A stretch of DNA of 64,000 bases from Roseobacter ponti. Lineage in GTDB: Bacteria; Pseudomonadota; Alphaproteobacteria; Rhodobacterales; Rhodobacteraceae. Positions 4,423-54,413 of the stretch are shown here, piece after piece. Made by a program: the position numbers and the translations under genes. The stretch spans positions 682,001-746,000 of the forward strand of contig NZ_CP048788.1 of NCBI RefSeq assembly GCF_012932215.1, read 5' to 3'. Below the pieces are notes generated by a model, which did no database searches, was not told the DNA's origin, and saw only the letters and a program-made list of their open reading frames with translations. The first letter of the stretch is position 1. Each line of letters begins with the position of its first letter.

Positions 4423-6021
4423 TCAGCGGGGCTGCGATCTGAGATGATCTGCAAGGCGTATCGCCAGTGCCACGATTGTCAGGGTGGGATTGGCATAGCC
4501 CGCGGTCGGGAAGACCGAGCTGCCCGCGATAAAGAGATTACGCATGCCATGCACACGGCAATCCGGATCAACGACACCCTGTGCGGGATCCTCGTGCATT
4601 CGGGTGGTTCCGATATGGTGTTTGCCACCGACCATGCTGGCAGGCCACCCGTTCTCCAGCCGGCTGTCATCCACAACAAGCTTTCCGGCTCCGGACCGGG
4701 CCATTGCCGCGCCTAAGCTGTCGATGAGGTGAGAGAGGCCGCGTTTGTCATCCTCCCGGATGCGCCAGTCGACCTGTACCCGTTGCATTCCAAAGGCGTC
4801 CCTTGCAGGGCCGAGCAGGACGCGACTGTCCCGGACCGGGGTTGTCTCAATAACGGTGCGGACGCTCATAACGTGCTTTGGAACGACCTTGTGGCTGACT
4901 GACTGAGCAAGGTTTCGCGTGACCTGGGCTGCACCTTTCACGGCCTGTGTGACATGAGACGCCAGGCGTCCGTCGGACAGGTCATAGTGACGCAGGACTT
5001 CTATCAGGAAATTGGCGGATCGCATGGCCGGCGCGTAATACTGCGGCCCTGTTTTATGAGCAGGCCGTCGGATCAGATAGGCTGCGGCCCCGTTCAGCTG
5101 CTCGCGCTTCTGGACGGCTTCAGGCAGACGGAAAGCACCATGTCCTCCGGTGATGTCGCCCTGGCTGTCATAGTTTTCTATGACGCACCAGTTGCGATCA
5201 AACGCCGGGCCGGACGGTTCAAAGTGGCCCACGGTGAAATATGGGTGATCGGCAAAGTAACGACCAACCAGATCGTGGCGATTGCCGATGCCGGCTCTCT
5301 CCGTTCTGTTCGAGGCGAGCATGACACGCGCGTTCTCGATGCCACCGAGAGCCAGGACATATGTCCGCGCGGCGAATTCGATCTTCCGCCCGTTGAAGGT
5401 GCGTGCCTTTATCGTCTGAACTTCATTCCCGTTCGGCGAAGACACGATTTCGACCGCATTGGCATTGCGCCACACGGTAACGTTGTCGGACGCCTCCAGC
5501 GCCGCGCCATAGGTTTGCGCAAAATCCTTCCGGCGGCTGAACTGATAAATGATCGTCTCGATCACTTCGGGGTCCAGCGGGAGGTCGCAGAGACCTTCCC
5601 GTGACAGAGCGGACGGTTCATAGCGATAAGGTCCGAGCGAGACAGTCCTGTGAGCGCGTTCATAGTATGGATCCAGCTCCGCCCTGCTCAGAGGCCAGCC
5701 GCTGTTGTCGATCCATTCCCGTTTTTCAAAGTCGAGCGTGTCGAGGGGGCGGCACTGACCTCCCCACCGCGTGGTTGAGCCGCCAAACCGGCGCAGGCGC
5801 GACTTTGCGACAGAGAAATTCGGCATGCCGATATTCTCGCCGCGATAGAGCATTTGCGGGCGGTGCCGGAAAGGGGTGTCGCCGCTTTCAACCAGCGCCA
5901 CAGACTGCGGTGTACCGTTCAGTTCCAGCGCCAGAGCGATGCCGGCTGCACCCGCTCCGACAATGCAGATGTCACAATCAACGCGACCTCCCGGATGGCT
6001 GCGCGCATCAATGCCTGCCAA
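4423..6021 (-). CDS. GMC-family FAD-dependent oxidoreductase
   Basis: The protein carries the FAD-binding Rossmann motif VGAGAAGIALALE near the N terminus and the GMC C-terminal domain with HHIGTTRMHEDP and the terminal ANPTLTIVALAIRLADHL block. Members oxidise alcohol groups of sugars, choline or other polyols; here the substrate is probably a glycan or sugar, judged only from context. It is the last gene of a five-gene minus-strand operon. I place the start at the TTG at 6021 because a strong AGGAG sits 7 bases upstream; it overlaps the preceding stop by 14 bases. An ATG at 6069 and a TTG at 6081 are in-frame alternatives with poorer ribosome binding sites. Confidence 0.8.
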   Translation of the reverse strand: MAGIDARSHPGGRVDCDICIVGAGAAGIALALELNGTPQSVALVESGDTPFRHRPQMLYRGENIGMPNFSVAKSRLRRFGGSTTRWGGQCRPLDTLDFEKREWIDNSGWPLSRAELDPYYERAHRTVSLGPYRYEPSALSREGLCDLPLDPEVIETIIYQFSRRKDFAQTYGAALEASDNVTVWRNANAVEIVSSPNGNEVQTIKARTFNGRKIEFAARTYVLALGGIENARVMLASNRTERAGIGNRHDLVGRYFADHPYFTVGHFEPSGPAFDRNWCVIENYDSQGDITGGHGAFRLPEAVQKREQLNGAAAYLIRRPAHKTGPQYYAPAMRSANFLIEVLRHYDLSDGRLASHVTQAVKGAAQVTRNLAQSVSHKVVPKHVMSVRTVIETTPVRDSRVLLGPARDAFGMQRVQVDWRIREDDKRGLSHLIDSLGAAMARSGAGKLVVDDSRLENGWPASMVGGKHHIGTTRMHEDPAQGVVDPDCRVHGMRNLFIAGSSVFPTAGYANPTLTIVALAIRLADHLRSQPR

Positions 6022-7585
6022 GGCCCTGCTCCTGATGTGATGCGAACAGGGGCTTTCCGCGGAAATCATCCGGCTGCTCAAGTTCCAGCAGAGAAAAGAC
6101 TGTCGGCGCCAGATCCATGATATGTGCGCCGCTCAGGCCTGCGCCCTTTCCGACGGACGCACCTGCCGCGATCAGGAACCCTTCGGGCCGGTGATTGCCG
6201 CTACGGGCCTGCGGGTGCCTGCCTGGCGTAGGCCAGGCGATCTCACCGTACTGAGATGACGTTATCCGGTGGTGCTTTGCCGCCGAAGACGGCGCCCAGC
6301 GGACCATGATATCCGGGAGGGTGTTTGCGATCTCAGCATCTTCGCCGAACAGTGTTGTGGCCCTGATCGTCTCCGCGACAAGCGGTTCGCCGCTGTCGGC
6401 ATCTGCATAAGTGAGTAAACCGGCTTCTATCTTTTGCAGCAGGGCCTCGAATTCTTCTCCCGGCTCCACAATGCCACCACTTTCGCGGCCTTTCAGGTTT
6501 ACCCTGACATAGCCGTCGAGATCGCTGAAGGCACTGAATGCCCGCGTCCGCGTCCAGTCAATGTTGCTGGTACGCCAGAAGAGGGTGAGCCAGTCCTGCA
6601 GGATGCGCGGAAGCCGGGTCTTGACCTTAGCCCGGAAGGATGTCGGAACGAGGATCCGCAAACGGTCCACCCAGCGCTTGTTATGGGCAGAGGCGGCCGC
6701 GCCCGGAGCGTTGTCTTCCACCACTCTGCTGAGCATTTCGCGCATAACTTCAGAACGCGACACGTTGACCCCCATGCCGTGAAGCGAGAAGACCATCGCC
6801 GTTGCATCCCCGCCTGCCTGCTCAAGCATATCGCCGATCCCGCGATCAATTGCGATATAGACCTGGCGCAGCGCGTCTTTGTGCTCCGCTTTCTGCTCGG
6901 GCGTCAGAGTGCCGGAGATATTGGTTTCGTCCCACAGCTGGTGCCCCGCGCGGTGGGTGGCCGCAAGGCAAACGATAAAGAGATCCCAGTCCTCGCGCTT
7001 CATAAGATCAACCGAGACCTGGCTGACCAGCTCAGTGGTGTTTATGCACTGATCGCGTACATTTATCATTTCCGCGTAGCTCAGCAGTCGCGATTCCTCG
7101 GCATCAAAGGGCGGTTTGCCGTATTCACGTTCGATATTCCGCAACAGGTCGGGAGGTTGCGATGCCGGTTTTTCAAGCAGTTCATGGGTCGCCCAGCCTG
7201 AAATCTCCGTGCCGGGAAACGTCTCAGGAGCGTAGGTCAGAGGCACATCAAGTGCGATAACCCTGCGGCCCTTCCGGGCTGCGCTGCGCCAGAAGGGATC
7301 AAGCGGTAACCAGTCTTTGCCTGGCCGGTCATGCTTCATCTGTTCCGGGCGCCATTGCAGATAGTGGTAAAGTCCGTGATCAGCCGGAGACGAACTGGTG
7401 TAGAAACTGGGCCAGGGCGAGCCGACTAGCCACCTGGCCGTTGATGCAAGGCGTCCGCTGCTGCCTCTGCCTGCAAGGCTCGCCATGTTTGGAAGCGCAC
7501 CTTCTGCCATCCACTCTTCTATGAGTGAGTATTCAGCAGCATCAAGTCCGATCATGATCACCGGGGCCCGATCAGTATCCGTCAT
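6008..7585 (-). CDS. Alkaline phosphatase superfamily protein (nucleotide pyrophosphatase/phosphodiesterase type)
   Basis: This 525-residue protein has the AlkP-superfamily layout of type I phosphodiesterases: an N-terminal strand with the first metal ligand (MIGLDAAEYSL), a nucleophile region (SPWPSFYTSSSPADHG), and later AATHRAGHQLWD and FSLHGMGVN blocks. In most relatives the last two read TDxxxH and SDHG, so one metal aspartate is changed to leucine. No signal peptide or membrane segment is seen, so it should be cytoplasmic. Its start overlaps the upstream GT2 gene by four bases (ATGA). It may process a nucleotide-sugar or phospho-glycan intermediate; that role is inferred from context only. 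Confidence 0.75.
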   Translation of the reverse strand: MTDTDRAPVIMIGLDAAEYSLIEEWMAEGALPNMASLAGRGSSGRLASTARWLVGSPWPSFYTSSSPADHGLYHYLQWRPEQMKHDRPGKDWLPLDPFWRSAARKGRRVIALDVPLTYAPETFPGTEISGWATHELLEKPASQPPDLLRNIEREYGKPPFDAEESRLLSYAEMINVRDQCINTTELVSQVSVDLMKREDWDLFIVCLAATHRAGHQLWDETNISGTLTPEQKAEHKDALRQVYIAIDRGIGDMLEQAGGDATAMVFSLHGMGVNVSRSEVMREMLSRVVEDNAPGAAASAHNKRWVDRLRILVPTSFRAKVKTRLPRILQDWLTLFWRTSNIDWTRTRAFSAFSDLDGYVRVNLKGRESGGIVEPGEEFEALLQKIEAGLLTYADADSGEPLVAETIRATTLFGEDAEIANTLPDIMVRWAPSSAAKHHRITSSQYGEIAWPTPGRHPQARSGNHRPEGFLIAAGASVGKGAGLSGAHIMDLAPTVFSLLELEQPDDFRGKPLFASHQEQGLGRH

Positions 7586-45889: not shown

Positions 45890-46798
45890 TCAGGGCCATT
45901 CATAGGTGACAAGCCGGGATGATCTGCCATCATCTGTCAGAACAAAGAGCCTGTCAGCCCCGGAACTCAGAGCAACACCTTCGGCGTTTTTCAGCAGTTT
46001 TGGTTTGTGCTTTTTGCTGCCGGGCAGGTCAAAGCGCCGAACCTCCTGCGTGTCCGGGTTCATCCTGAACAGTGATCTGCCGGTGTCGCTGACGATCAGG
46101 ATGTCCCCTGTGGTTCCGTCGATCGTCAGCCCCGACAGATCCATCTCGTCGTCGCGCGCGTGCGGAGAGGAAAAGCCTGCGTCGCGCCCGAGGATCCACC
46201 ACTGAAGAAGCCTGGTAAAGTCCGCACTGATTTCGAGCAGCAGGCGCGGCTCTGTCTCATTTGCGATAAATATGTGGCCGCTGACCGGGTGAACCGCGAT
46301 GCCTTCGAACCCTTTATTTTTCGGCGCGGCACTAAGGTGCTGCCGGACGGCATCGATACCGGCCAGGTCTCTCATCTCTGCCGTTCTGATCCGCCGGCCA
46401 CTGGCCGGATCAATGACAGCAACCGATCGTGCTCCCTCCTCAAGAACCAGAAGGACACCGTCGGGCATAACCGCGATGCCTTCGGGATCCCGGACCGGAA
46501 AGTCAGGATTGATGCGGTCGACGACACTCCCCTCATCATCCAGGACAAATATGGCACCTGTGTTGTCGCTCACTGCATAAAAGCGGGTGCCGTCGAGGCT
46601 CCGGGCGAGGCCGGACGGTTCTGTGAACTGCTCTGAGGCGTCATAGATTTTCTGCGAGTCCATCAGGCGAAGCGCTTCACCGTCAGACGCCCTGGCCCAG
46701 GATACGAGGAGGCAAACGAAAAGTACCGGCAGGAAGTGCAGAGCCGCGCCGCGCCGGTACTTTTTATGCATCGGCGGGTGTTGCCGGTCGCTCTTCAT
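45890..46798 (-). CDS. SdiA-regulated-domain (YjiK-like) beta-propeller protein
   Basis: A 302-residue exported protein: signal peptide (ALHFLPVLFVCLLVSWARA) and a propeller with repeated strands such as EPSGLARSLDGTRFYAVSD, DPEGIAVMPDGVLLVLEEG and NKGFEGIAVHPVSGHIFIANE. This matches the SdiA-regulated/YjiK family, whose role is not settled. The start at 46798 follows GAGAGA; an ATG at 46771 is an alternative that trims the n-region. It is convergent with the lone ABC membrane gene. Confidence 0.78.
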   Translation of the reverse strand: MKSDRQHPPMHKKYRRGAALHFLPVLFVCLLVSWARASDGEALRLMDSQKIYDASEQFTEPSGLARSLDGTRFYAVSDNTGAIFVLDDEGSVVDRINPDFPVRDPEGIAVMPDGVLLVLEEGARSVAVIDPASGRRIRTAEMRDLAGIDAVRQHLSAAPKNKGFEGIAVHPVSGHIFIANETEPRLLLEISADFTRLLQWWILGRDAGFSSPHARDDEMDLSGLTIDGTTGDILIVSDTGRSLFRMNPDTQEVRRFDLPGSKKHKPKLLKNAEGVALSSGADRLFVLTDDGRSSRLVTYEWP

Positions 46799-47014
46799 TG
46801 CGGGTCTCTCTCATCAGCATTGCTCTGCCGGGCTCTGAACCCGCGCCGTCACAACCGAACCACCACCGGGGTGACACCCCTGACGAGATGCGCCAGCGCC
46901 GCAGTCAGATCCGGGTTCAGCCTGCATTATTGACATTTCGTTCCTGAAAAGGAACGTGTAACGCACCGGTGAACCCGGTTTATGATACGTCTCTGCCCCG
47001 GAAAGTCCCGTGAA

Positions 47015-47770
47015 ATGAAATTGCGCATAGTCCTTTTTTCGGTTTTTGCCTGTGCTGTGCCGATGATCGCACAGGCGCAGATGCTGCCGGGGACGGAGTC
47101 GATGGCCATGCCCGCGCAGGTCGATATCACTGCCGGCGGCTGGGGACAGATCCGGGACCTGGATGAGCTCATTACTTTCGGAATGTACGTCCTGACCACC
47201 GTAATATTGACCTGGGCAATCGTCTTTCACCCGGTCCGTCAGGCATCGCGACGGACCCTTGATGATCTGCTGATGCCGCGGCTCTTTTTCCTCTACGCGC
47301 TGATCGGCATGGCGGTCGGTTTTCTTGTGATACAGCACGGGTACATCATCGGGTTTGTCGTGTTCGGTATCGGCGCATTGCTGAGATTCCGCTCTAACCT
47401 GGAAGATCCTGTCGACACGGTGGAGATGATCCTTGTGACTGTGATCGGTCTGGCCATCGGGCTGGACCTGCCGGTTATGGCTATTCTGCTGGCCATCGTG
47501 GCCTGGGTGTTCATCTGGATCGGCGGGCGCACGAAAGGTGTTGAGGTGTCGCTGAAAGCAGACAGCGAGCCGGATGTGATGGAGGCATTCCGGCTGCTCA
47601 AGGAGGCAACGTCGGGGCCGGGCTGGAAAGTCATTCACCAGAAACATGTCGCAGGCAAAACCGGAATAACTGTGGTTTATCAGGTTTCAGGCAGCCTGTC
47701 TGAACAGGAAATTGAGACCCTGCTCACAGATGCTGTCCCTGCGGGGACAGAATGTAAGATCAGGCTCTGA
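47015..47770 (+). CDS. Inner membrane protein of unknown function (DUF4956-like)
   Basis: The protein has a signal-like first segment (IVLFSVFACAVPMIAQAQ), then five membrane helices from about 45 to 165 and a cytoplasmic C-terminal domain of about 80 residues. The core FGIGALLRFRSNLEDPVDTV and TVIGLAIGLDLPV resembles MgtC/DUF4956-type proteins, where the charged FRS/ED loop lies between helices. Function unknown. The ATG at 47015 is chosen for the signal; an ATG at 46982 is in frame. It stands alone and runs convergently into the broken PLD gene. Confidence 0.6.
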   Translation: MKLRIVLFSVFACAVPMIAQAQMLPGTESMAMPAQVDITAGGWGQIRDLDELITFGMYVLTTVILTWAIVFHPVRQASRRTLDDLLMPRLFFLYALIGMAVGFLVIQHGYIIGFVVFGIGALLRFRSNLEDPVDTVEMILVTVIGLAIGLDLPVMAILLAIVAWVFIWIGGRTKGVEVSLKADSEPDVMEAFRLLKEATSGPGWKVIHQKHVAGKTGITVVYQVSGSLSEQEIETLLTDAVPAGTECKIRL

Positions 47771-47801: not shown

Positions 47802-49076
47802 TTAAAGCTCGCCGTCGCGGGGCAGAAGGGCAAAAAACCAGTCTTCGATGCGCTGCATAAAGGACGCGGCCGGCTCCGCGTTCAGCACCACATCGTCGCC
47901 GACCCATATCAGCATGTTGTCCGCTGTCAGTTCGAGTCGCCAGGCGTTGGATGTGCCGAGATCCGGCGCGGTGAGATCTCTGATCGCCCTGTTCACGCGG
48001 CGGTCCCGCACAATCAGCCCCACCTCGGTATTGAGACGCAGCGACCTGGGGTCGATGTTGGCGCTCCCGATCATGACGGTATCGGTGTCGATGATCAGAT
48101 ATTTCGCGTGCAGCGCCAGCCGTTTGTCTTCCACCGGCGCGGTGATATAGCGTTTACGGCTCGGGGCGTCGGCGCGCAGTTCATGCAGGCTGACACCTGA
48201 GGACATCAGTGCACGGATGTGCTCGCGATACGCACTGTGACCCGCGAGATGATTGTTGGACCGGACAGAATTTGTCAGGATCGTCACTGTCACGCCGCGC
48301 TCAACCGCAGTTTTCAGTGCATCCGTGACCGTCGGGGACGGGATCAGACGGGCCGTCATGATAGTGATGTCGCGCCGTGCGCCTGCAATAAGCTGCAGGA
48401 TGCGGTTTGCCACCTGAACGGGCCGGTCCGACGGTGCCGCCGCACTCTCAGCGGGCGGTGTATCTGCGATAAGCTCTGCCCGCCCGGTACAGGAGCTGCG
48501 CAGAGCGCGTCGCCATGCGAAAGCTCGCTCCTGCTCTGTCTCAGCAGGGAAAAGGGAGCGCGAAACCTGCCACGGAGCGTCGCTTTCATGGGATGTGGGG
48601 GCCACCCTGGCCTGCGCAATCCTGTCCACCAGGAACGACCAGTTATCGTTTCAGCAGGCGTCGAAAACCTGAGATGATTTCCGGGCGACCGGTCCGCCGA
48701 CCAGCAATTCCATATCCCGGAAATTACCGCCGCCGCTAAGGCCGAAGTATTCATCGGCGATGTTACGTCCGCCGATAATGGCAACCTGATTGTCGACCAT
48801 CATGGTCTTGTTGTGCATGCCGTGGTCAACACGGCTGAATTCGCCGAGGTTCAGGATCTGCCAGTCGCCTGCCCGGATTTCTTCAATCTCAGCTCAGACG
48901 CCGGTCTGCGCGGGTGCGCGGCTGGTTTCATCGGCAATCTCTACGGGTTGCAGTGCGGAGCAACCCAGGAGCAGTGACAGCGACAGAAGCCCCGCAAGCG
49001 CGCGCACAGCTCTGACCGTCGCCAGGGCCGTTGCGATCCGACCGCTGGTCGCGGGCAGGGTGGGCGTTCGGATCAC
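47802..49076 (-). pseudogene. Phospholipase D-family lipoprotein with two in-frame stops
   Basis: One reading frame from 49076 to 47802 encodes a lipoprotein signal (LAGLLSLSLLLGCSALQP), then TGA at 48896-48894, then GEFSRVDHGMHNKTMMVDNQ with the first HKD motif and IIGGRNIADEYF, then a second TGA at 48653-48651 in the place of Trp in FDACWNDNW, then the second HKD motif LHAKYLIIDTDTVMIGSANI. Relatives of this cardiolipin synthase-like family are longer; roughly 90-130 residues between the lipobox and the first HKD appear deleted. Both active-site motifs remain recognisable, so loss is recent. The 3' piece (47802-48629) is open from a GTG. Confidence 0.8.
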
Positions 49077-49684
49077 TCGATGCCAAAGATAACGTTGTAT
49101 TCCACCAAAGCATTACTGCGGTTGATGACCTCAACCACGTGATCACCACTCTGCCAGAGCTGGCCGCGATACTCCTGGCCGGCGTTCATGAGCCCGAGCA
49201 GTTCGGAGCCGTCCGGATTGCGGATGACATAGTCAAGCGTGCCGTTCCGGGGGGCCACGCGCACAAAAAGATACTGCTCGTTTGCAGCGCCGAGAACATA
49301 TTGCCGCGTGGCGCCGGGAGCGAGTGTCCCGGTCAGTTCCGCGCCGGTTGTGCCGGCGTCAAAGGCAACCCGCTGTGTTTGTGTCGCGCCGTCAGCCCCG
49401 GCCATCGCGCCGCCGCCGTCATCCATGGCCTCCACCGCCGCAAAATCACCGATCGCACCATCGCTGTAAGCGATGCACCGCCAGAGCGTTCCGCCCGCAT
49501 CCCGCAGCATTACGAGCGTGCCGGCCTCGGAAAACTCGGAACTCTCAATCGTGCCGGACTGCCCGTCAGGCCCTCCGACGCCGCGCAGGTGGTCAATACA
49601 TGCATCGTCTGCATCGGACATTGCAGCAGCGGATGTGCCGGTAATAACTGCGGACAGTGAAATGATAGTTATTAGAGTTTTCAT
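49073..49684 (-). CDS. Secreted hypothetical protein with pre-peptidase-like C-terminal domain
   Basis: A 203-residue protein with a signal peptide (TLITIISLSAVITGTSAAA), two cysteines in the N-terminal half (DACIDHL, LWRCIAY) and a C-terminal beta-sandwich (ELTGTLAPGATRQYVLGAAN ... GDHVVEVINRSN) that resembles bacterial pre-peptidase C-terminal or inhibitor-like domains. No catalytic motif is seen. AAGGAAAAAG precedes the ATG. It overlaps the start of the broken PLD gene by four bases, so both formed an operon. Confidence 0.7.
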   Translation of the reverse strand: MKTLITIISLSAVITGTSAAAMSDADDACIDHLRGVGGPDGQSGTIESSEFSEAGTLVMLRDAGGTLWRCIAYSDGAIGDFAAVEAMDDGGGAMAGADGATQTQRVAFDAGTTGAELTGTLAPGATRQYVLGAANEQYLFVRVAPRNGTLDYVIRNPDGSELLGLMNAGQEYRGQLWQSGDHVVEVINRSNALVEYNVIFGIE

Positions 49685-50085: not shown

Positions 50086-50379
50086 TCAGCAGTCTCCTGC
50101 AGGCAGCATATTGATCGACGAATAGCGTCCGTCCGAAGTCGTGATCTCGGCGCAGGCACCGGTGCTGCGATTGAACCAGTAGGACGTCAGTCCTTCGGAC
50201 CGGATGAGCTCATACCCGAGGTTCTGAATACCCATTTCGGCCTGGCCTGCTTTGGCGCCCTCGAAGGCTGACAGATCGGAACTGCTGCCCACTGCGGGCG
50301 TGCCTGCTGATCCTGTGTCCTCGACACATCCGGCCAGCGGAAGAGCAATGACGGTTGCAGCAAAAATGATTTTTTTCAT
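50086..50379 (-). CDS. Small hypothetical lipoprotein
   Basis: A 97-residue protein with a lipobox (FAATVIALPLAGC) giving an acylated Cys near residue 18, and a short domain with two further cysteines (GACAEITTSDGRYSSI and the C-terminal DC) that could form a disulfide. AAGGAAAA precedes the ATG. Function unknown; probably outer or inner membrane anchored in the periplasm. Confidence 0.65.
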   Translation of the reverse strand: MKKIIFAATVIALPLAGCVEDTGSAGTPAVGSSSDLSAFEGAKAGQAEMGIQNLGYELIRSEGLTSYWFNRSTGACAEITTSDGRYSSINMLPAGDC

Positions 50380-50541: not shown

Positions 50542-51297
50542 TTGTCTGAGTCCCTGCAGAATGACGCCGGCAGCACCGGTGGGAGGCTCTTGTGGCTTGA
50601 TATCGCGCGAACAGCGGCGCTGCTCGGGATGGTCGTTTTTCATTTTTTCCACGATCTGGAGATCTTCGGGATACTGCCGCGCGGCACCACAGTCACAGGG
50701 GGATGGGACGTTTTTTCCAGCCTCGTTGCCGGATCATTCCTTTTTATCGCCGGGATCAGCTTCCGGCTCGCGCATGGCGGTGGCGTAAGGTGGCGCAGCT
50801 TTCTGCGACGGTTCGTGGTTCTGTGCCTTGCCGCAGCGCTGGTGTCGCTAGCGACCTTTGTTGTGTTTCCTGAAAACTTCATCAGGTTCGGCATTCTGCA
50901 CTGCATCGCTTTGTCGGGCGTGCTGGGGCTTTTGTGTCTGCGGCTGCCTGCTGTGGTCAACGCCGGTCTTGCCATCGTCTTTATGATGGCGCCGGACCAT
51001 CTGCGCTCCGATCTTTTTAATGCGGATCTTCTGCTCTGGACAGGCCTTGCGACGGCGACCCCGCCGGCACTCGATTATATTCCCGTGTTGCCCTGGTCGG
51101 GCTTGTTTCTGGCAGGGCTGGCAGCCGCGCAGATGCTGCGACCGGGCAGACACCGGCCAGGTGTCGCGCTTTCTGCACCATATGCGAAAGGGGCGGCTTT
51201 TCTTGCCTGGCCGGGCCGGCACAGCCTGACCATTTACCTGTTGCATCAACCGATCCTGCTGGGTCTAATCTGGACAGGTGTGACGCTGGTGTCCTGA
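50542..51297 (+). CDS. DUF1624 / heparan-alpha-glucosaminide N-acetyltransferase-like membrane protein
   Basis: A 251-residue membrane protein with about seven helices and the family start RLLWLDIARTAALLGMVVFH, followed by FLFIAGISFRLAHG, FGILHCIALSGVLGLL and PGRHSLTIYLLHQPILLGL. The His residues in the helix loops are the family's candidate acyl-transfer sites. It may move acetyl groups across the membrane to a glycan or other periplasmic target. The start is a TTG at 50542; no in-frame ATG or GTG precedes the conserved part. It is 50 bases upstream of a set of three secreted-protein genes and may be co-transcribed. Confidence 0.78.
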   Translation: MSESLQNDAGSTGGRLLWLDIARTAALLGMVVFHFFHDLEIFGILPRGTTVTGGWDVFSSLVAGSFLFIAGISFRLAHGGGVRWRSFLRRFVVLCLAAALVSLATFVVFPENFIRFGILHCIALSGVLGLLCLRLPAVVNAGLAIVFMMAPDHLRSDLFNADLLLWTGLATATPPALDYIPVLPWSGLFLAGLAAAQMLRPGRHRPGVALSAPYAKGAAFLAWPGRHSLTIYLLHQPILLGLIWTGVTLVS

Positions 51298-51347: not shown

Positions 51348-51995
51348 ATGAGATTTCTGACCGCAATACTGGTGATCGTGATGAGCACCTCTCTGGCTGC
51401 CGCGCAGGATTTTACCGCCCGCTCCGGAGGCCCGTCTGAGAACGAGATGATGGTGCGCAATGTCGGTGATGCACCCGATGGCATGGCCTTTTTCCGTCCG
51501 GTTCTGAGCGGTGTGCTCTATCGCGGCGGCTTCTCGGGCGGGGACAAGGCCCGGACGGGGCTTGGTTCATCGCAGCGCCAGGAGCTGTGCGAGGACGGAT
51601 TTTCCCAGGCATTCTATGCTGATTTCGGCAAAAACACCGACTACTCCGCCGCATCCTGTGCAAAGGGGCAGATGAGCTATGCTGCGGCCCGTTCATCACG
51701 ACCGGCCAGCGTGATGAAGGCGGTGCATGATGTGATCAAAGCGCCCGGAAAAGGGCCGGTGCTGGTGCACTGCATGTGGGGTGTACATTCTTCGGGTGCG
51801 CTTTCGGCCATGGCGCTGGTGCAGTTCTGCGGCTGGTCTGAGGACCGCGCCAAAGCCTACTGGAACGAGGCGCGCAACGGGGCCCCCTGTTCAGGTGGTT
51901 GTGACAAGTGGATCGATGGCAAGTTTGAGCGCTTTAAGGTGGATGCTTCACTGAATATCTCCGCTGCCGAACAACAGGCGATCTGCCCCAGATGA
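51348..51995 (+). CDS. Secreted Cys-phosphatase-like protein with altered signature
   Basis: A 215-residue protein with a signal peptide (FLTAILVIVMSTSLAAAQ). The region FFRPVLSGVLYRGGFSGGD recalls the N-terminal strand of dual-specificity phosphatases, and the loop VLVHCMWGVHSSGALSAMAL corresponds to the HCx5R phosphate-binding loop, with Ser where the Arg should be. Several further cysteines (PCSGGC, QQAICPR) could form disulfides outside the cytoplasm. It could bind phosphorylated targets without cleaving them, or use a changed mechanism. GAGGA precedes the ATG at 51348; its stop overlaps the next gene (ATGA). Confidence 0.65.
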   Translation: MRFLTAILVIVMSTSLAAAQDFTARSGGPSENEMMVRNVGDAPDGMAFFRPVLSGVLYRGGFSGGDKARTGLGSSQRQELCEDGFSQAFYADFGKNTDYSAASCAKGQMSYAAARSSRPASVMKAVHDVIKAPGKGPVLVHCMWGVHSSGALSAMALVQFCGWSEDRAKAYWNEARNGAPCSGGCDKWIDGKFERFKVDASLNISAAEQQAICPR

Positions 51996-53452
51996 GTGTT
52001 CCGGGACCGCGCCGCATCCGATCCGTACTCAGTTCCGCGGCTCTTGTCATTGCGTCTTTGCAGGTCGCTCAGGCCGGCGATCAGGTGCAGGGCGATGAGA
52101 CCCGCTTTGAGACGCCTGCCGGCACGATTGAGCGCTGCGTGAAAATTGCGCCTGTCCCGCAGGGGACGTATTCAAAAAGTGACCGCAAGACCGAAAGCGA
52201 CTATTGCAGCATCGATTTTTATGCCCCTGCGGTTGCTCTGTGTCCCAAGACCTGGAGCACCAGCCCCGGCATGATGATCTATGATGTCGCATCGGGCCCC
52301 TATGCCAGTGATCGTGCCGCGTTTGAACGCAACGCCTGCAAGGAGGGTAAATCCGCCAGAAACCTCGCCGGAGATACGCTTGCAAAATACAAGGTCACGA
52401 TGAATCAGAGCGGCACGAGCGGTACGTTTTCGCCGTCGCCACTGCTCTATTATCACTTCTCGCGCTACTTCGGCACGGAGGTGCTGGTGCCGGTGGCGGT
52501 CTGGCGCACGATGGACAGCACGCTGCACGCCGCCGAAGTTGCACGCCCCGGGCTTGCGATCTCAGGGCATAACCGATCTGCGCGGATGAACCATGAGGGC
52601 TGGCGCTATCTGGTCGCGGCCGACGAAAAACCTCAAAGCTATACGCCCGTTGATGATCTTTTTACAGCGGACAGGACACAGATTTACGGTGTGCTGCTCA
52701 ACAGCCCCGGCCACCGTTATGGCTCGGAGATTAACGGCACCCGGAAATCCGGATGGGGCAAGGGCCAGAACAACGATTTTCAGAAAACACCGGCCTTTCT
52801 CGCTTTGCGCTCGCCGGCGCCGCTGCCTCAGGCCATTGCCGATGGTCTGTCTGAGGGCCGCAAAGATCCGCAGATAAGCAAAGATCTCGGTCCGGACGTG
52901 ACGCCCGCGCAGATGGCGTTCTGGATGCGCGAGATATCCGAAATCGTCCTGCTGGATTTCATCTTCAGTCAGCAGGACCGTGTCGGCAACATTGATTTTA
53001 CACCCTATTATTACTGGGTCGAAGGCGACGATCTGAAACATAAAAAGGCAAAACATCACGAACCGGGCGACGGGTCGGTGCCGCAGGCGGCCATCCTGCT
53101 GCGACGCACCAACCTGAACGACAATGATGCCGGCGGACGGGTGCAATATGCGAATTTCGCCAAGAGCACGAAGATGCTGGAAAAGTTCCGGCATTTCGAT
53201 GCAGGGGTTTATCGCCGTCTGATGGCGCTGAACACCGATCTGGCGGCACAGGGGCCGGTCTATCAGTGGACGGAGAACAGCTTCGGGCTTACCGACCGTC
53301 AGGTGCAGCAGGTCGTGAAAAACACCCAACTGGCGACGGATATTCTGCGCGCCACATGTGACAGGGGAGAGCTGATTTTTGACCTTGATCCGCGCATGTT
53401 TCTCGCAAAGGGTTCGGTGACCCCGCAAGAGGTGTCCTGTGACGGCAATTAG
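51992..53452 (+). CDS. Secreted protein with kinase-like (FAM20/PI4K-like) motifs
   Basis: A 486-residue exported protein (signal SVLSSAALVIASLQVAQA) with six cysteines. No named family is recognised, but the middle and end follow an atypical kinase pattern: a strand with AKYKVTMNQ (possible Lys), a helix and strand YYHFSRYFGTEVLVPVAVW, then LLDFIFSQQDRVGNIDF, which has the D-R-x-x-N of the catalytic loop, and later RRTNLNDNDAGGR with an acidic metal-site-like DND. This order resembles secreted FAM20-type and PI4K-type kinases. The kinase reading is an inference; structure prediction would decide. It is translationally coupled to a phosphatase-like gene and overlaps a metallophosphoesterase gene. 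Confidence 0.6.
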   Translation: MSVPGPRRIRSVLSSAALVIASLQVAQAGDQVQGDETRFETPAGTIERCVKIAPVPQGTYSKSDRKTESDYCSIDFYAPAVALCPKTWSTSPGMMIYDVASGPYASDRAAFERNACKEGKSARNLAGDTLAKYKVTMNQSGTSGTFSPSPLLYYHFSRYFGTEVLVPVAVWRTMDSTLHAAEVARPGLAISGHNRSARMNHEGWRYLVAADEKPQSYTPVDDLFTADRTQIYGVLLNSPGHRYGSEINGTRKSGWGKGQNNDFQKTPAFLALRSPAPLPQAIADGLSEGRKDPQISKDLGPDVTPAQMAFWMREISEIVLLDFIFSQQDRVGNIDFTPYYYWVEGDDLKHKKAKHHEPGDGSVPQAAILLRRTNLNDNDAGGRVQYANFAKSTKMLEKFRHFDAGVYRRLMALNTDLAAQGPVYQWTENSFGLTDRQVQQVVKNTQLATDILRATCDRGELIFDLDPRMFLAKGSVTPQEVSCDGN

Positions 53453-54413
53453 AACTGCTCTTATCGCCGCACTGCTGTTTCTGTTCAGTATTGTCCCGGC
53501 TCTGGCCGACGGGCTTCGTGTCGCGGTCATCTCGGATCTGAACGGATCTTACGGGTCCGTGGTATATAACCCCCGTGTCAGCGCGGCAGTTGAGCGGATC
53601 ATTGCGCTTGAGCCCGATCTCGTACTGTTGACCGGTGATATGGTGGCAGGGCAGCGCCGGCCGCATCTGAGTGAGGCAGAGGTTCGCGCGATGTGGCGCG
53701 CGTTTCACGGAGTCGTCAGCGTCCCGCTGGCACGTGCGGGCATTCCTCTTGCCGTAACGCCGGGCAATCACGATGCATCAGGATATTCCGGGTTTGAGCA
53801 GGAACGCCGCATCTATGCAGACGAGTGGCGGAACCGGGTTCCTGAGGTTCAGTTTGTGCCCGGCGGCGCGTATCCGTTTCACTATGCCTTCAACATGGCC
53901 GGTGTGCAGTTCATATCGCTGGACGCAACGGTGGTCGGAAGTCTTGACCCTGCGCAGCGGGCATGGCTCGGCGCGCTCGGGACAGACGATATCTCAGCCC
54001 GCATTGTCTTCAGCCATCTGCCGCTGTGGCCCTTTGCACAGGGTCGGGAAACGCAGATTATCGGCGATGCTGCCGTGGCGCGGTTTTTTCAGGACCAGCA
54101 GATTGATCTGCATCTGTCAGGGCACCATCACGCATTCTACCCGGGATCAGAAGGCGGGGTCGCCTATGTCTCGCAGGCCTGCCTCGGTTCAGGGCCGCGC
54201 GCGCTGATCGGAGAAAGCGCAAAGTCATCGCCGGGATTCACGCTGATCGACATCTCCGCAACGGGAAACATCCAGGTGTCAGCATTCGAGGGCCGTGCGT
54301 TTGACGCGCCGGTCGATTTCACGACGCTGCCGCGCCGGATCAGCTCGCCCGACGCGGTGCTGACACGGCTTGACCTCGCGCCGACCCAAAAGGTGAGTGT
54401 GTCCGGAAGGTAA
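53439..54413 (+). CDS. Secreted calcineurin-fold metallophosphoesterase
   Basis: A 324-residue protein with a signal peptide (LIAALLFLFSIVPALADG) and all five metallophosphoesterase blocks: VISDLNG (Asn where DxH is usual), LLTGDMVAG, VTPGNHDASG, FSHLPLWP and LSGHHHAFYPG. It hydrolyses phosphomonoesters or diesters in the periplasm. The start overlaps the kinase-like gene by 14 bases, so the three secreted-protein genes form one coupled unit. The DxN change in block 1 is uncommon and may alter metal preference. Confidence 0.82.
   Translation: MTAIRTALIAALLFLFSIVPALADGLRVAVISDLNGSYGSVVYNPRVSAAVERIIALEPDLVLLTGDMVAGQRRPHLSEAEVRAMWRAFHGVVSVPLARAGIPLAVTPGNHDASGYSGFEQERRIYADEWRNRVPEVQFVPGGAYPFHYAFNMAGVQFISLDATVVGSLDPAQRAWLGALGTDDISARIVFSHLPLWPFAQGRETQIIGDAAVARFFQDQQIDLHLSGHHHAFYPGSEGGVAYVSQACLGSGPRALIGESAKSSPGFTLIDISATGNIQVSAFEGRAFDAPVDFTTLPRRISSPDAVLTRLDLAPTQKVSVSGR

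What the first reader, a model, noticed from the sequence alone, without database searches (positions are those of the whole stretch)
51348..54413. Coupled operon of three secreted proteins: phosphatase-like, kinase-like and metallophosphoesterase
Seen: three genes with signal peptides overlap by 4 and 14 bases. The first has an HCx5R-like loop, the second has an ordered set of atypical kinase motifs (strand Lys, helix and strand, DRVGN loop, DND), the third has complete metallophosphoesterase blocks. Cysteines are abundant, as in exported proteins. Known: FAM20-type secreted kinases exist and phosphorylate extracytoplasmic targets, but periplasmic phosphorylation systems are scarcely described in bacteria. 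Inference: this may be a self-contained periplasmic phosphorylation/dephosphorylation module, possibly acting with the DUF1624 acyltransferase upstream on a glycan or protein.
Basis: partly seen in the sequence, partly recalled or inferred. Interest (0 to 1): 0.75.

Follow-up and report, generated by a model that had tools for sequence, protein, structure and literature searches.

The report
Bacterial FAM20-like secreted kinase gene module
A bacterium carries a conserved set of genes for proteins that look exported, built around one predicted to be shaped like the animal FAM20 secreted kinases, which hints at phosphorylation chemistry outside the cytoplasm.

Summary
The trio is real: A (51348-51995), B (51992-53452) and C (53439-54413) overlap by 4 and 14 bases and have signal-like N-termini. 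B has no Pfam or NCBIfam match, but its AlphaFold model (pLDDT 87.9) finds Fam20 structures as the first 25 PDB matches (best E 3.5e-4). DRxxN and DND are invariant in 32 of 32 sequences.

Three corrections. A has a phosphatase-like fold, but the Arg of HCx5R is Ser/Ala in 26 of 26. B lacks a counterpart of the loop Glu that Fam20C needs, so activity is unproven. The unit is larger: a weakly DUF4956-like membrane protein M and a propeller P accompany it in 24 and 20 of 27 loci; in the window they lie at 45890-47770. All 13 genomes with strong M have B. The acyltransferase is near in 9 of 27.

Best reading: an extracytoplasmic phosphorylation module, donor and substrate unknown. A glycan role is plausible: two distant B relatives adjoin polysaccharide-type genes, and papers place CotH and DUF4956 genes beside pel. 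B is not a FAM20 family member by sequence.

The parts
51348..51995 (+). A: DSP/PTP-fold protein with signal-like N-terminus and an Arg-less P-loop
   Evidence: Foldseek first hits STYX and TpbA; weak PF00102/PF00782/PF13350 matches below cut-off; in 25 of 27 B loci
51768..51797 (+). P-loop of A, HCMWGVHSSG (residues 141-150)
   Evidence: H141-H147 and S149-G150 invariant, Arg position S/A in 26 of 26; HMMER aligns it to PTP loops, best E 0.0086
51992..53452 (+). B: FAM20-like kinase fold, signal-like N-terminus
   Evidence: AF2 pLDDT 87.9, pTM 0.87; first 25 Foldseek rows are Fam20 proteins
52391..52393 (+). K134 of B, in the strand before the alpha-C-like helix
   Evidence: 32 of 32; strand 128-135 in the model
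52976..52990 (+). catalytic-loop-like D329-R-V-G-N333 of B
   Evidence: D329, R330, N333 invariant in 32 of 32; kept in a 29% identical relative
53120..53128 (+). metal-loop-like D377-N378-D379 of B
   Evidence: invariant in 32 of 32; kept in the 29% relative
53439..54413 (+). C: calcineurin-like metallophosphoesterase with signal-like N-terminus, block I D-x-N
   Evidence: PF00149 E 6.2e-17; eleven block residues checked, invariant in 25 of 25; in 26 of 27 B loci
46982..47770 (+). M: DUF4956-like membrane protein (likely start 47015, by eye)
   Evidence: 12 of 15 members match PF16316 at E <= 0.1, best 1.1e-4; window copy only E 0.08-0.14; in 24 of 27 B loci
45890..46798 (-). P: SdiA-regulated / phytase-like propeller, signal-like N-terminus by eye
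   Evidence: PF06977 E 7.8e-25, PF13449 E 2.1e-16; in 20 of 27 B loci
50542..51297 (+). D: HGSNAT_cat (DUF1624) acyltransferase, optional neighbour
   Evidence: PF07786 E 9.5e-68; in 9 of 27 B loci

Best explanation
A-B-C-M-P is an extracytoplasmic phosphorylation module. B is exported and uses a FAM20-like kinase fold to transfer phosphate to an exported substrate, most likely a glycan or an envelope protein (inferred). C, a metallophosphoesterase, and perhaps P remove or turn over phosphate esters (inferred from family). A is a DSP-fold protein that keeps the Cys but lacks the phosphate-gripping Arg; it more likely binds or regulates than acts as an ordinary phosphatase (inferred). M ties the exported proteins to the inner membrane, as DUF4956 proteins may do beside CotH kinases (inferred). 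Shown by computation: gene order, conservation, co-occurrence, predicted fold. Not shown: ATP binding, catalysis, substrate, localisation.
For: Fold of B nearest Fam20: 4 of 4 Foldseek matches at E <= 0.001 and the first 25 of 50 listed rows are Fam20 proteins; the next kinase fold, CtkA, is at E 1.3. Active-site-like residues invariant in 32 of 32, with DR..N and DND kept at 29% identity in another family of the same class. A 25, C 26, M 24, P 20 of 27 loci. In samples of 295 genomes with the same handles, 14 have B at >= 59% identity and 13 of these have strong M on the same contig within 5 kb; no genome without B has strong M (two weak hits, E 1.2e-5 and 3.8e-4; hypergeometric 9e-22, which ignores kinship). 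Papers: a CotH-like kinase, a polyphosphate polymerase, DUF4956 and DUF4832 lie beside pel genes in streptococci and clostridia (PMC7112168, passages); S. intermedius mutants of the CotH-like gene SIR_1594 and of SIR_1592, a four-TM/ACT protein, had changed Pel and reduced aggregation (PMC12345266, passages; that SIR_1592 is the DUF4956 gene is my inference).
Against: From residue 135 to 160 of B no column is acidic in more than 7 of 32 (residue 161 is acidic in 27 of 32, but Gly in the window), whereas Fam20C needs E306 and pairs K285 with E311 (PMC4421793, passages). No match of B to Fam20, CotH or HipA profiles. TM-scores are modest (0.36-0.43 by query). The periplasm is thought to hold little ATP (recalled). 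A's Arg is missing. M's DUF4956 assignment is below Pfam's cut-off, and 2 of 15 members match DUF456, with a better best E-value (3.9e-5). In 14 control genomes CotH and DUF4956 coincide in two, and each occurs once without the other. The glycan link rests on neighbours of two distant relatives and on other phyla.
Confidence: 0.55

Rival explanations
1. B is a pseudokinase and A a pseudophosphatase: together they form an exported phospho-ligand-binding sensor or scaffold that regulates C, M or P, with no phosphotransfer by B.
For: B has no counterpart of the Glu that Fam20C needs and that the pseudokinase Fam20A has lost; A lacks the P-loop Arg in 26 of 26 and its best fold match is STYX, a phosphatase-like interacting protein.
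Against: K134, D329, R330, N333, D377, N378 and D379 are all invariant in 32 of 32, and DR..N and DND persist at 29% identity, more than I would expect of a dead site; N333 could stand in for the missing Glu as a metal ligand (inferred).
Confidence: 0.25
2. B uses the kinase fold for another transfer (for example AMPylation or glutamylation, as SelO and SidJ do), modifying an exported target.
For: Kinase-fold proteins with such activities are known (titles in the reference list of PMC7948968; start of the abstract of PMC6858067).
Against: No residue pattern specific to those proteins was looked for in B; the nearest fold is Fam20, and neither SelO nor SidJ is named among the 50 listed matches.
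Confidence: 0.08
3. The set is a phosphate-scavenging cassette in which C and P hydrolyse organic phosphates and B and A bind them.
For: C and P match phosphoesterase-like families.
Against: Does not explain a kinase fold with invariant active-site-like residues, nor M. No phosphate transporter was among the neighbour families that were run through Pfam; other neighbours were not annotated.
Confidence: 0.1

Closest known systems
Fam20 secreted kinases (Fam20A/B/C, PF06702)
   Same: Predicted fold, signal-like N-terminus, conserved cysteines, DR and DN motifs in the places of the catalytic and metal Asp (match by eye; the Fam20 letters are recalled and come from no call).
   Different: No match to PF06702; no counterpart of E306 and E311; six conserved Cys rather than four disulfides; bacterial operon with DSP-like and metallophosphoesterase proteins.
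CotH - polyphosphate polymerase - DUF4956 - DUF4832 set beside Gram-positive pel operons
   Same: A secreted kinase-type protein paired with a DUF4956-type membrane protein, linked to exopolysaccharide (PMC7112168, PMC12345266, passages).
   Different: B does not match CotH; CotH in 0 of 120 family genomes, own included; no VTC match in the own genome; A, C and P are extra; M is only weakly DUF4956-like.
TpbA of Pseudomonas aeruginosa (periplasmic by recall)
   Same: DSP fold; structural ranks 2 and 4 for A; weak profile match, E 0.017.
   Different: A lacks the P-loop Arg; A is coupled to B. The TpbA-Pel paper PMC2691606 was seen only in a listing.
Legionella families near the FAM20/CotH group
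   Same: Bacterial proteins predicted to be kinases, four families clustering with FAM20/CotH (PMC9758233, passages).
   Different: Legionella proteins from a survey of effector-type kinases; no comparison with B was made here.
HipA/CtkA kinases
   Same: DR-N and DN motifs similar to those of B (by eye).
   Different: CtkA matches only at E 1.3-2.1; no HipA family match.

Membership tests
Fam20 (PF06702) | Sequence match to the family profile | tested here: not met
   No match at E <= 10 for B nor at E <= 1 for any of 32 sequences; none in the own genome (where no control genome rang)
Fam20 (PF06702) | Fam20 kinase fold | tested here: met
   Predicted model only: first 25 of 50 listed PDB matches, E 3.5e-4 to 3.3e-2
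Fam20 (PF06702) | Catalytic Asp (D458) and metal Asp (D478) | tested here: inconclusive
   D329 and D377 invariant in 32 of 32 and in the right order; no residue-level superposition could be made
Fam20 (PF06702) | Essential Glu in the K-beta3/K-alpha3 loop (E306) and ion-pair Glu (E311) | tested here: not met
   No column from 130 to 160 acidic in more than 7 of 32; residue 161 acidic in 27 of 32 but Gly in the window; requirement from PMC4421793. By sequence and predicted strand/helix order, not by superposition
Fam20 (PF06702) | Four conserved disulfides | tested here: not met
   Six conserved Cys, three pairs at most; four disulfides in PMC5865150
Fam20 (PF06702) | Phosphotransfer to secreted protein or glycan | not testable with these tools
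   Needs an assay
CotH (PF08757) | Sequence match to the family profile | tested here: not met
   No match for B; 0 of 120 genomes of the family, own included (three control genomes rang)
Dual-specificity / tyrosine phosphatases (A) | HCx5R P-loop | tested here: not met
   Cys+6 is S or A in 26 of 26 and A in the 37% relative
Dual-specificity / tyrosine phosphatases (A) | DSP fold | tested here: met
   47 Foldseek matches at E <= 0.001; the 50 listed are named as phosphatases or phosphatase-like, except a few chains of axonemal/microtubule structures; five models pLDDT 84.7 to 57.4
Calcineurin-like metallophosphoesterases (C) | PF00149 match with metal-ligand blocks | tested here: met
   E 6.2e-17, over cut-off; block I D-x-N
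DUF4956 (M) | PF16316 match above cut-off | tested here: not met
   Window copy 12.3-13.1 bits and L041 copy 21.2 bits against 30.6; best E among 15 members 1.1e-4, scores of the others not shown; own genome none

The most novel reading that the evidence does not exclude
The set is a new type of extracytoplasmic phosphorylation machine in which the DUF4956-like membrane protein hands a phosphoryl donor across the inner membrane to a FAM20-fold kinase, so that the kinase needs no free periplasmic ATP, and the Arg-less DSP-fold protein reads the phosphorylated product. If DUF4956 does the same for CotH kinases, one principle would cover both.
Probability: 0.1. Interest if true: 0.85.

Novelty: new variant of a known kind. 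Interest (0 to 1): 0.62.

Why it matters
As far as I know, few kinases acting outside the bacterial cytoplasm have been characterised, and how they obtain a phosphoryl donor is open. A small, tightly co-inherited gene set in Roseobacter-type bacteria, with a predicted kinase fold of the animal FAM20 type, makes both questions testable. If the pairing of a secreted FAM20/CotH-type fold with a DUF4956-type membrane protein holds in unrelated bacteria, it gives a concrete hypothesis for what DUF4956 does.

Tried and rejected
Sequence searches of B in Pfam, NCBIfam, PADLOC and the PDB gave nothing usable; five families matched one of 32 sequences each (best E 0.017) and are taken as chance, as are a surface protein at E 0.39 and two kinases at E 1.1 and 2 that align to the C-terminal part of B. 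B in plasmids and phages: no match (records near the window's genome may be left out there). CotH, VTC and DUF4956 proper: no match in the own genome. The one PF06702 hit, 1 of 249 genomes, is below cut-off and reads like a HipA-type protein by eye; no control genome rang, so that search had no positive control. K2 beside the distant B (L091:5176-6339) looks kinase-like by eye, but Pfam, PDB and profile comparison gave no support and 0 of 58 genomes matched; the output itself says that an empty answer shows nothing. The defence reading found no PADLOC match. In one search the L011 row had wrong coordinates, so that alignment is not used. The first neighbour count was superseded.

Rows left out: alignment A1 of B holds the window, 26 of 27 loci and 5 loci; A2 of A holds the window, 23 of the 25 loci with A and 2; A3 of C the window and 24 of the 26 loci with C. 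Loci were not aligned.

Not done: superposition of B on Fam20 (no coordinates), models of M, P or C, a search for A, C or P in genomes without B.

Odds: on re-checking, the DUF456 matches of M and the control genomes in which CotH and DUF4956 part company lowered the novel case from 0.12 to 0.10.
Full report
What is there. Three genes lie in one operon: A 51348-51995, B 51992-53452 and C 53439-54413 on the + strand, overlapping by 4 and 14 bases. All three start with a hydrophobic stretch, and this is kept in relatives (31 of 32 B, 25 of 26 A, 25 of 25 C pass a simple test; internal windows pass in 50 of 640, 114 of 520 and 27 of 500, so the test is weakest for A). Export is therefore likely; no dedicated signal-peptide program was available.

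B, distribution. No Pfam or NCBIfam family matched B at E <= 10, and no PDB sequence matched meaningfully. Relatives were found in 17 of 295 genomes of the same family: 14 at 59% identity or more, one at 48%, one at 40%, one as broken pieces. In the public genome collection 27 loci encode one; the named ones are genera that I know as Rhodobacteraceae/Roseobacter group (recalled). Six pairs of loci look like the same locus in both sets (same match values), and L030 and L042 come from one strain. In 341 genomes of the order 20 had it; of the 8 genomes of the window's own genus listed there 2 had it, so it is patchy. In 385 genomes of the class only the window's own had it; in 200 of the phylum one more did, from another family of the same class; among 51 genomes centred on that one, none besides itself.

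B, fold. AlphaFold2 on 27 sequences gave pLDDT 87.9 and pTM 0.87. Foldseek against the PDB listed 50 of 159 matches: the first 25 are all Fam20 proteins (Fam20A, Fam20C, Hydra Fam20, and the Golgi casein kinase 4kqb/4kqa; 4kqb is C. elegans Fam20C according to PMC7948968), E 3.5e-4 to 3.3e-2, probability 0.97-1.00. The next kinase folds are CtkA at E 1.3-2.1 and PI3K at 2.2. TM-scores are 0.36-0.43 by query length, so the core is shared but not the whole protein. No CotH structure is named among the 50 listed.

B, residues. In 32 aligned sequences (relatives 38-71% identical to the window protein) K86, K134, D329, R330, N333, D377, N378 and D379 are invariant. The DR..N and DND motifs stand also in a 29% identical relative from another family. 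But no column from 135 to 160 is acidic in more than 7 of 32; residue 161 is acidic in 27 of 32, yet Gly in the window. In Fam20C, E306 in the loop before the corresponding helix coordinates the metal and is indispensable, and E311 pairs with K285; Fam20A has Gln in place of E306 and is a pseudokinase (PMC4421793 and PMC5413348, passages). B therefore either uses another metal ligand, for which N333 is my candidate (inference), or is not a kinase.

A. The model (best of five pLDDT 84.7, the others 76.6 to 57.4) matches dual-specificity phosphatases: 47 matches at E <= 0.001, first STYX, then TpbA of Pseudomonas aeruginosa, periplasmic by recall. Its loop is HCMWGVH[S/A]SG. HMMER aligns it to PTP loops (best E 0.0086) with S in the place of the Arg, and the position is S in 16 and A in 10 of 26. 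The 37% identical relative has HCWYGLHASG. The loop thus lacks the Arg in every sequence seen, and ordinary phosphatase action is doubtful.

C. PF00149 at E 6.2e-17; a purple acid phosphatase is the nearest PDB sequence, E 0.008. The eleven block residues checked are invariant in 25 of 25, with block I as D-x-N.

The unit is larger. By tblastn in the 27 loci: A 25, C 26, M 24, P 20, D 9. One locus (L021) is cut by its contig end within C, and L027 ends before P. M follows C on the same strand in 15 of the 24, lies before A in 7, and is inverted behind C in 2; P follows M in all 20. In the window P (-) and M (+) are divergent at 45890-47770, about 3.6 kb before A with other genes between. M's relatives match DUF4956 weakly (12 of 15 at E <= 0.1, best 1.1e-4, below Pfam's cut-off as far as scores are shown); 2 of 15 match DUF456 (best 3.9e-5) and 2 MgtC (best 1.2e-3). 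P matches SdiA-regulated (E 7.8e-25) and phytase-like (E 2.1e-16) families.

Co-inheritance. In 295 genomes with the same handles, M was found strongly (E <= 1e-58) in 13. All 13 have B, on the same contig within 5 kb; the only genome with B at 59% or more and no M is G040. Two more genomes have weak M hits (E 1.2e-5, 3.8e-4) without B. The hypergeometric value, 9e-22, ignores kinship.

Distant relatives. In the other family (L091) A and B are again adjacent on one strand (the listed ORFs overlap by 19 bases, but a Met 28 codons into B is a likelier start by eye); C, M and P gave no hit there. In L071 (48%) B and C, without A, lie beside a glycosyltransferase 2 / polysaccharide deacetylase protein and a DUF3131 protein; in L070 (38%) B, without A or C, lies near relatives of the same two. 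In L044 (42%) B stands without A, C, M or P beside sugar-phosphate genes (gene names by eye). So A-B and B-C each occur without the third gene, and B alone.

Literature. In streptococci and clostridia a CotH-like kinase, a polyphosphate polymerase, DUF4956 and DUF4832 genes lie next to pel genes (PMC7112168, passages). In Streptococcus intermedius, mutants of the CotH-like SIR_1594 and of SIR_1592, a four-TM/ACT protein, had changed Pel levels and reduced aggregation (PMC12345266, passages; that SIR_1592 is the DUF4956 gene is my inference). In 14 control genomes CotH rang in B. subtilis, C. glutamicum and M. acetivorans, DUF4956 and VTC each in B. ihuae, C. glutamicum and M. acetivorans: CotH and DUF4956 coincide in two and part in two, so this small sample gives only slight support. 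The window's genome has no match to any of the three (same calls).

Print. A survey of Legionella kinases calls FAM20 a eukaryotic- or Metazoa-specific cluster, but also places four new Legionella families with the FAM20/CotH group (PMC9758233, passages), so bacterial proteins of this neighbourhood have been predicted before. Searches for bacterial or periplasmic Fam20-type kinases (0 papers, 20 of 44, 15 of 26 and 25 of 1,431 listed) showed no title describing this gene set; most subscription papers are not in that library, so absence from print is not established.

Mechanism. Most likely B phosphorylates an exported glycan or envelope protein, C and perhaps P process phosphate esters, A binds or regulates, and M connects the system to the inner membrane. 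Predicted fold, conservation and linkage are computed; catalysis, donor, substrate and localisation are inferred. The chief rival is a pseudokinase/pseudophosphatase sensor. Fam20 membership fails on three tested features (profile match, Glu residues, disulfides), but 'works like a Fam20-fold kinase' is not excluded by these.

Noticed in passing
L091:5176-6339 (+): Beside the most distant A-B pair lies a divergently oriented protein of 387 aa with signal-like N-terminus whose motifs look like a second FAM20-type kinase by eye (an EIAAF helix, a DR..GGN loop, a DNG loop); no database match.
   Followed up: partly
window 49073-49684 (-) and 50086-50379 (-): A 203 aa protein and a 97 aa lipoprotein have relatives in 12 and 9 of the 31 neighbourhoods, window included, beside other small lipoproteins; possible substrates, or simply a common set in these bacteria.
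   Followed up: no
G726, G849 and the Marivita loci L030/L042: Some genomes carry two full-length copies of B; in G849 they lie about 30 kb apart.
   Followed up: no
L069 (G013), about 6000-7000: B and C survive only as broken pieces, with a transposase-like gene about 3 kb away (by eye), which suggests that the set is also lost.
   Followed up: partly
window 47802-48629 (-): A PLD-like protein (PF13091, E 2.1e-24) sits between M and A; relatives are in 2 other loci (cluster 17).
   Followed up: no
L071:117-6177 and L070:8650-13499: DUF3131 proteins and polysaccharide deacetylase / glycosyltransferase-type genes lie beside two distant B relatives; in L070 the deacetylase match is weak (E 0.0068).
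   Followed up: partly
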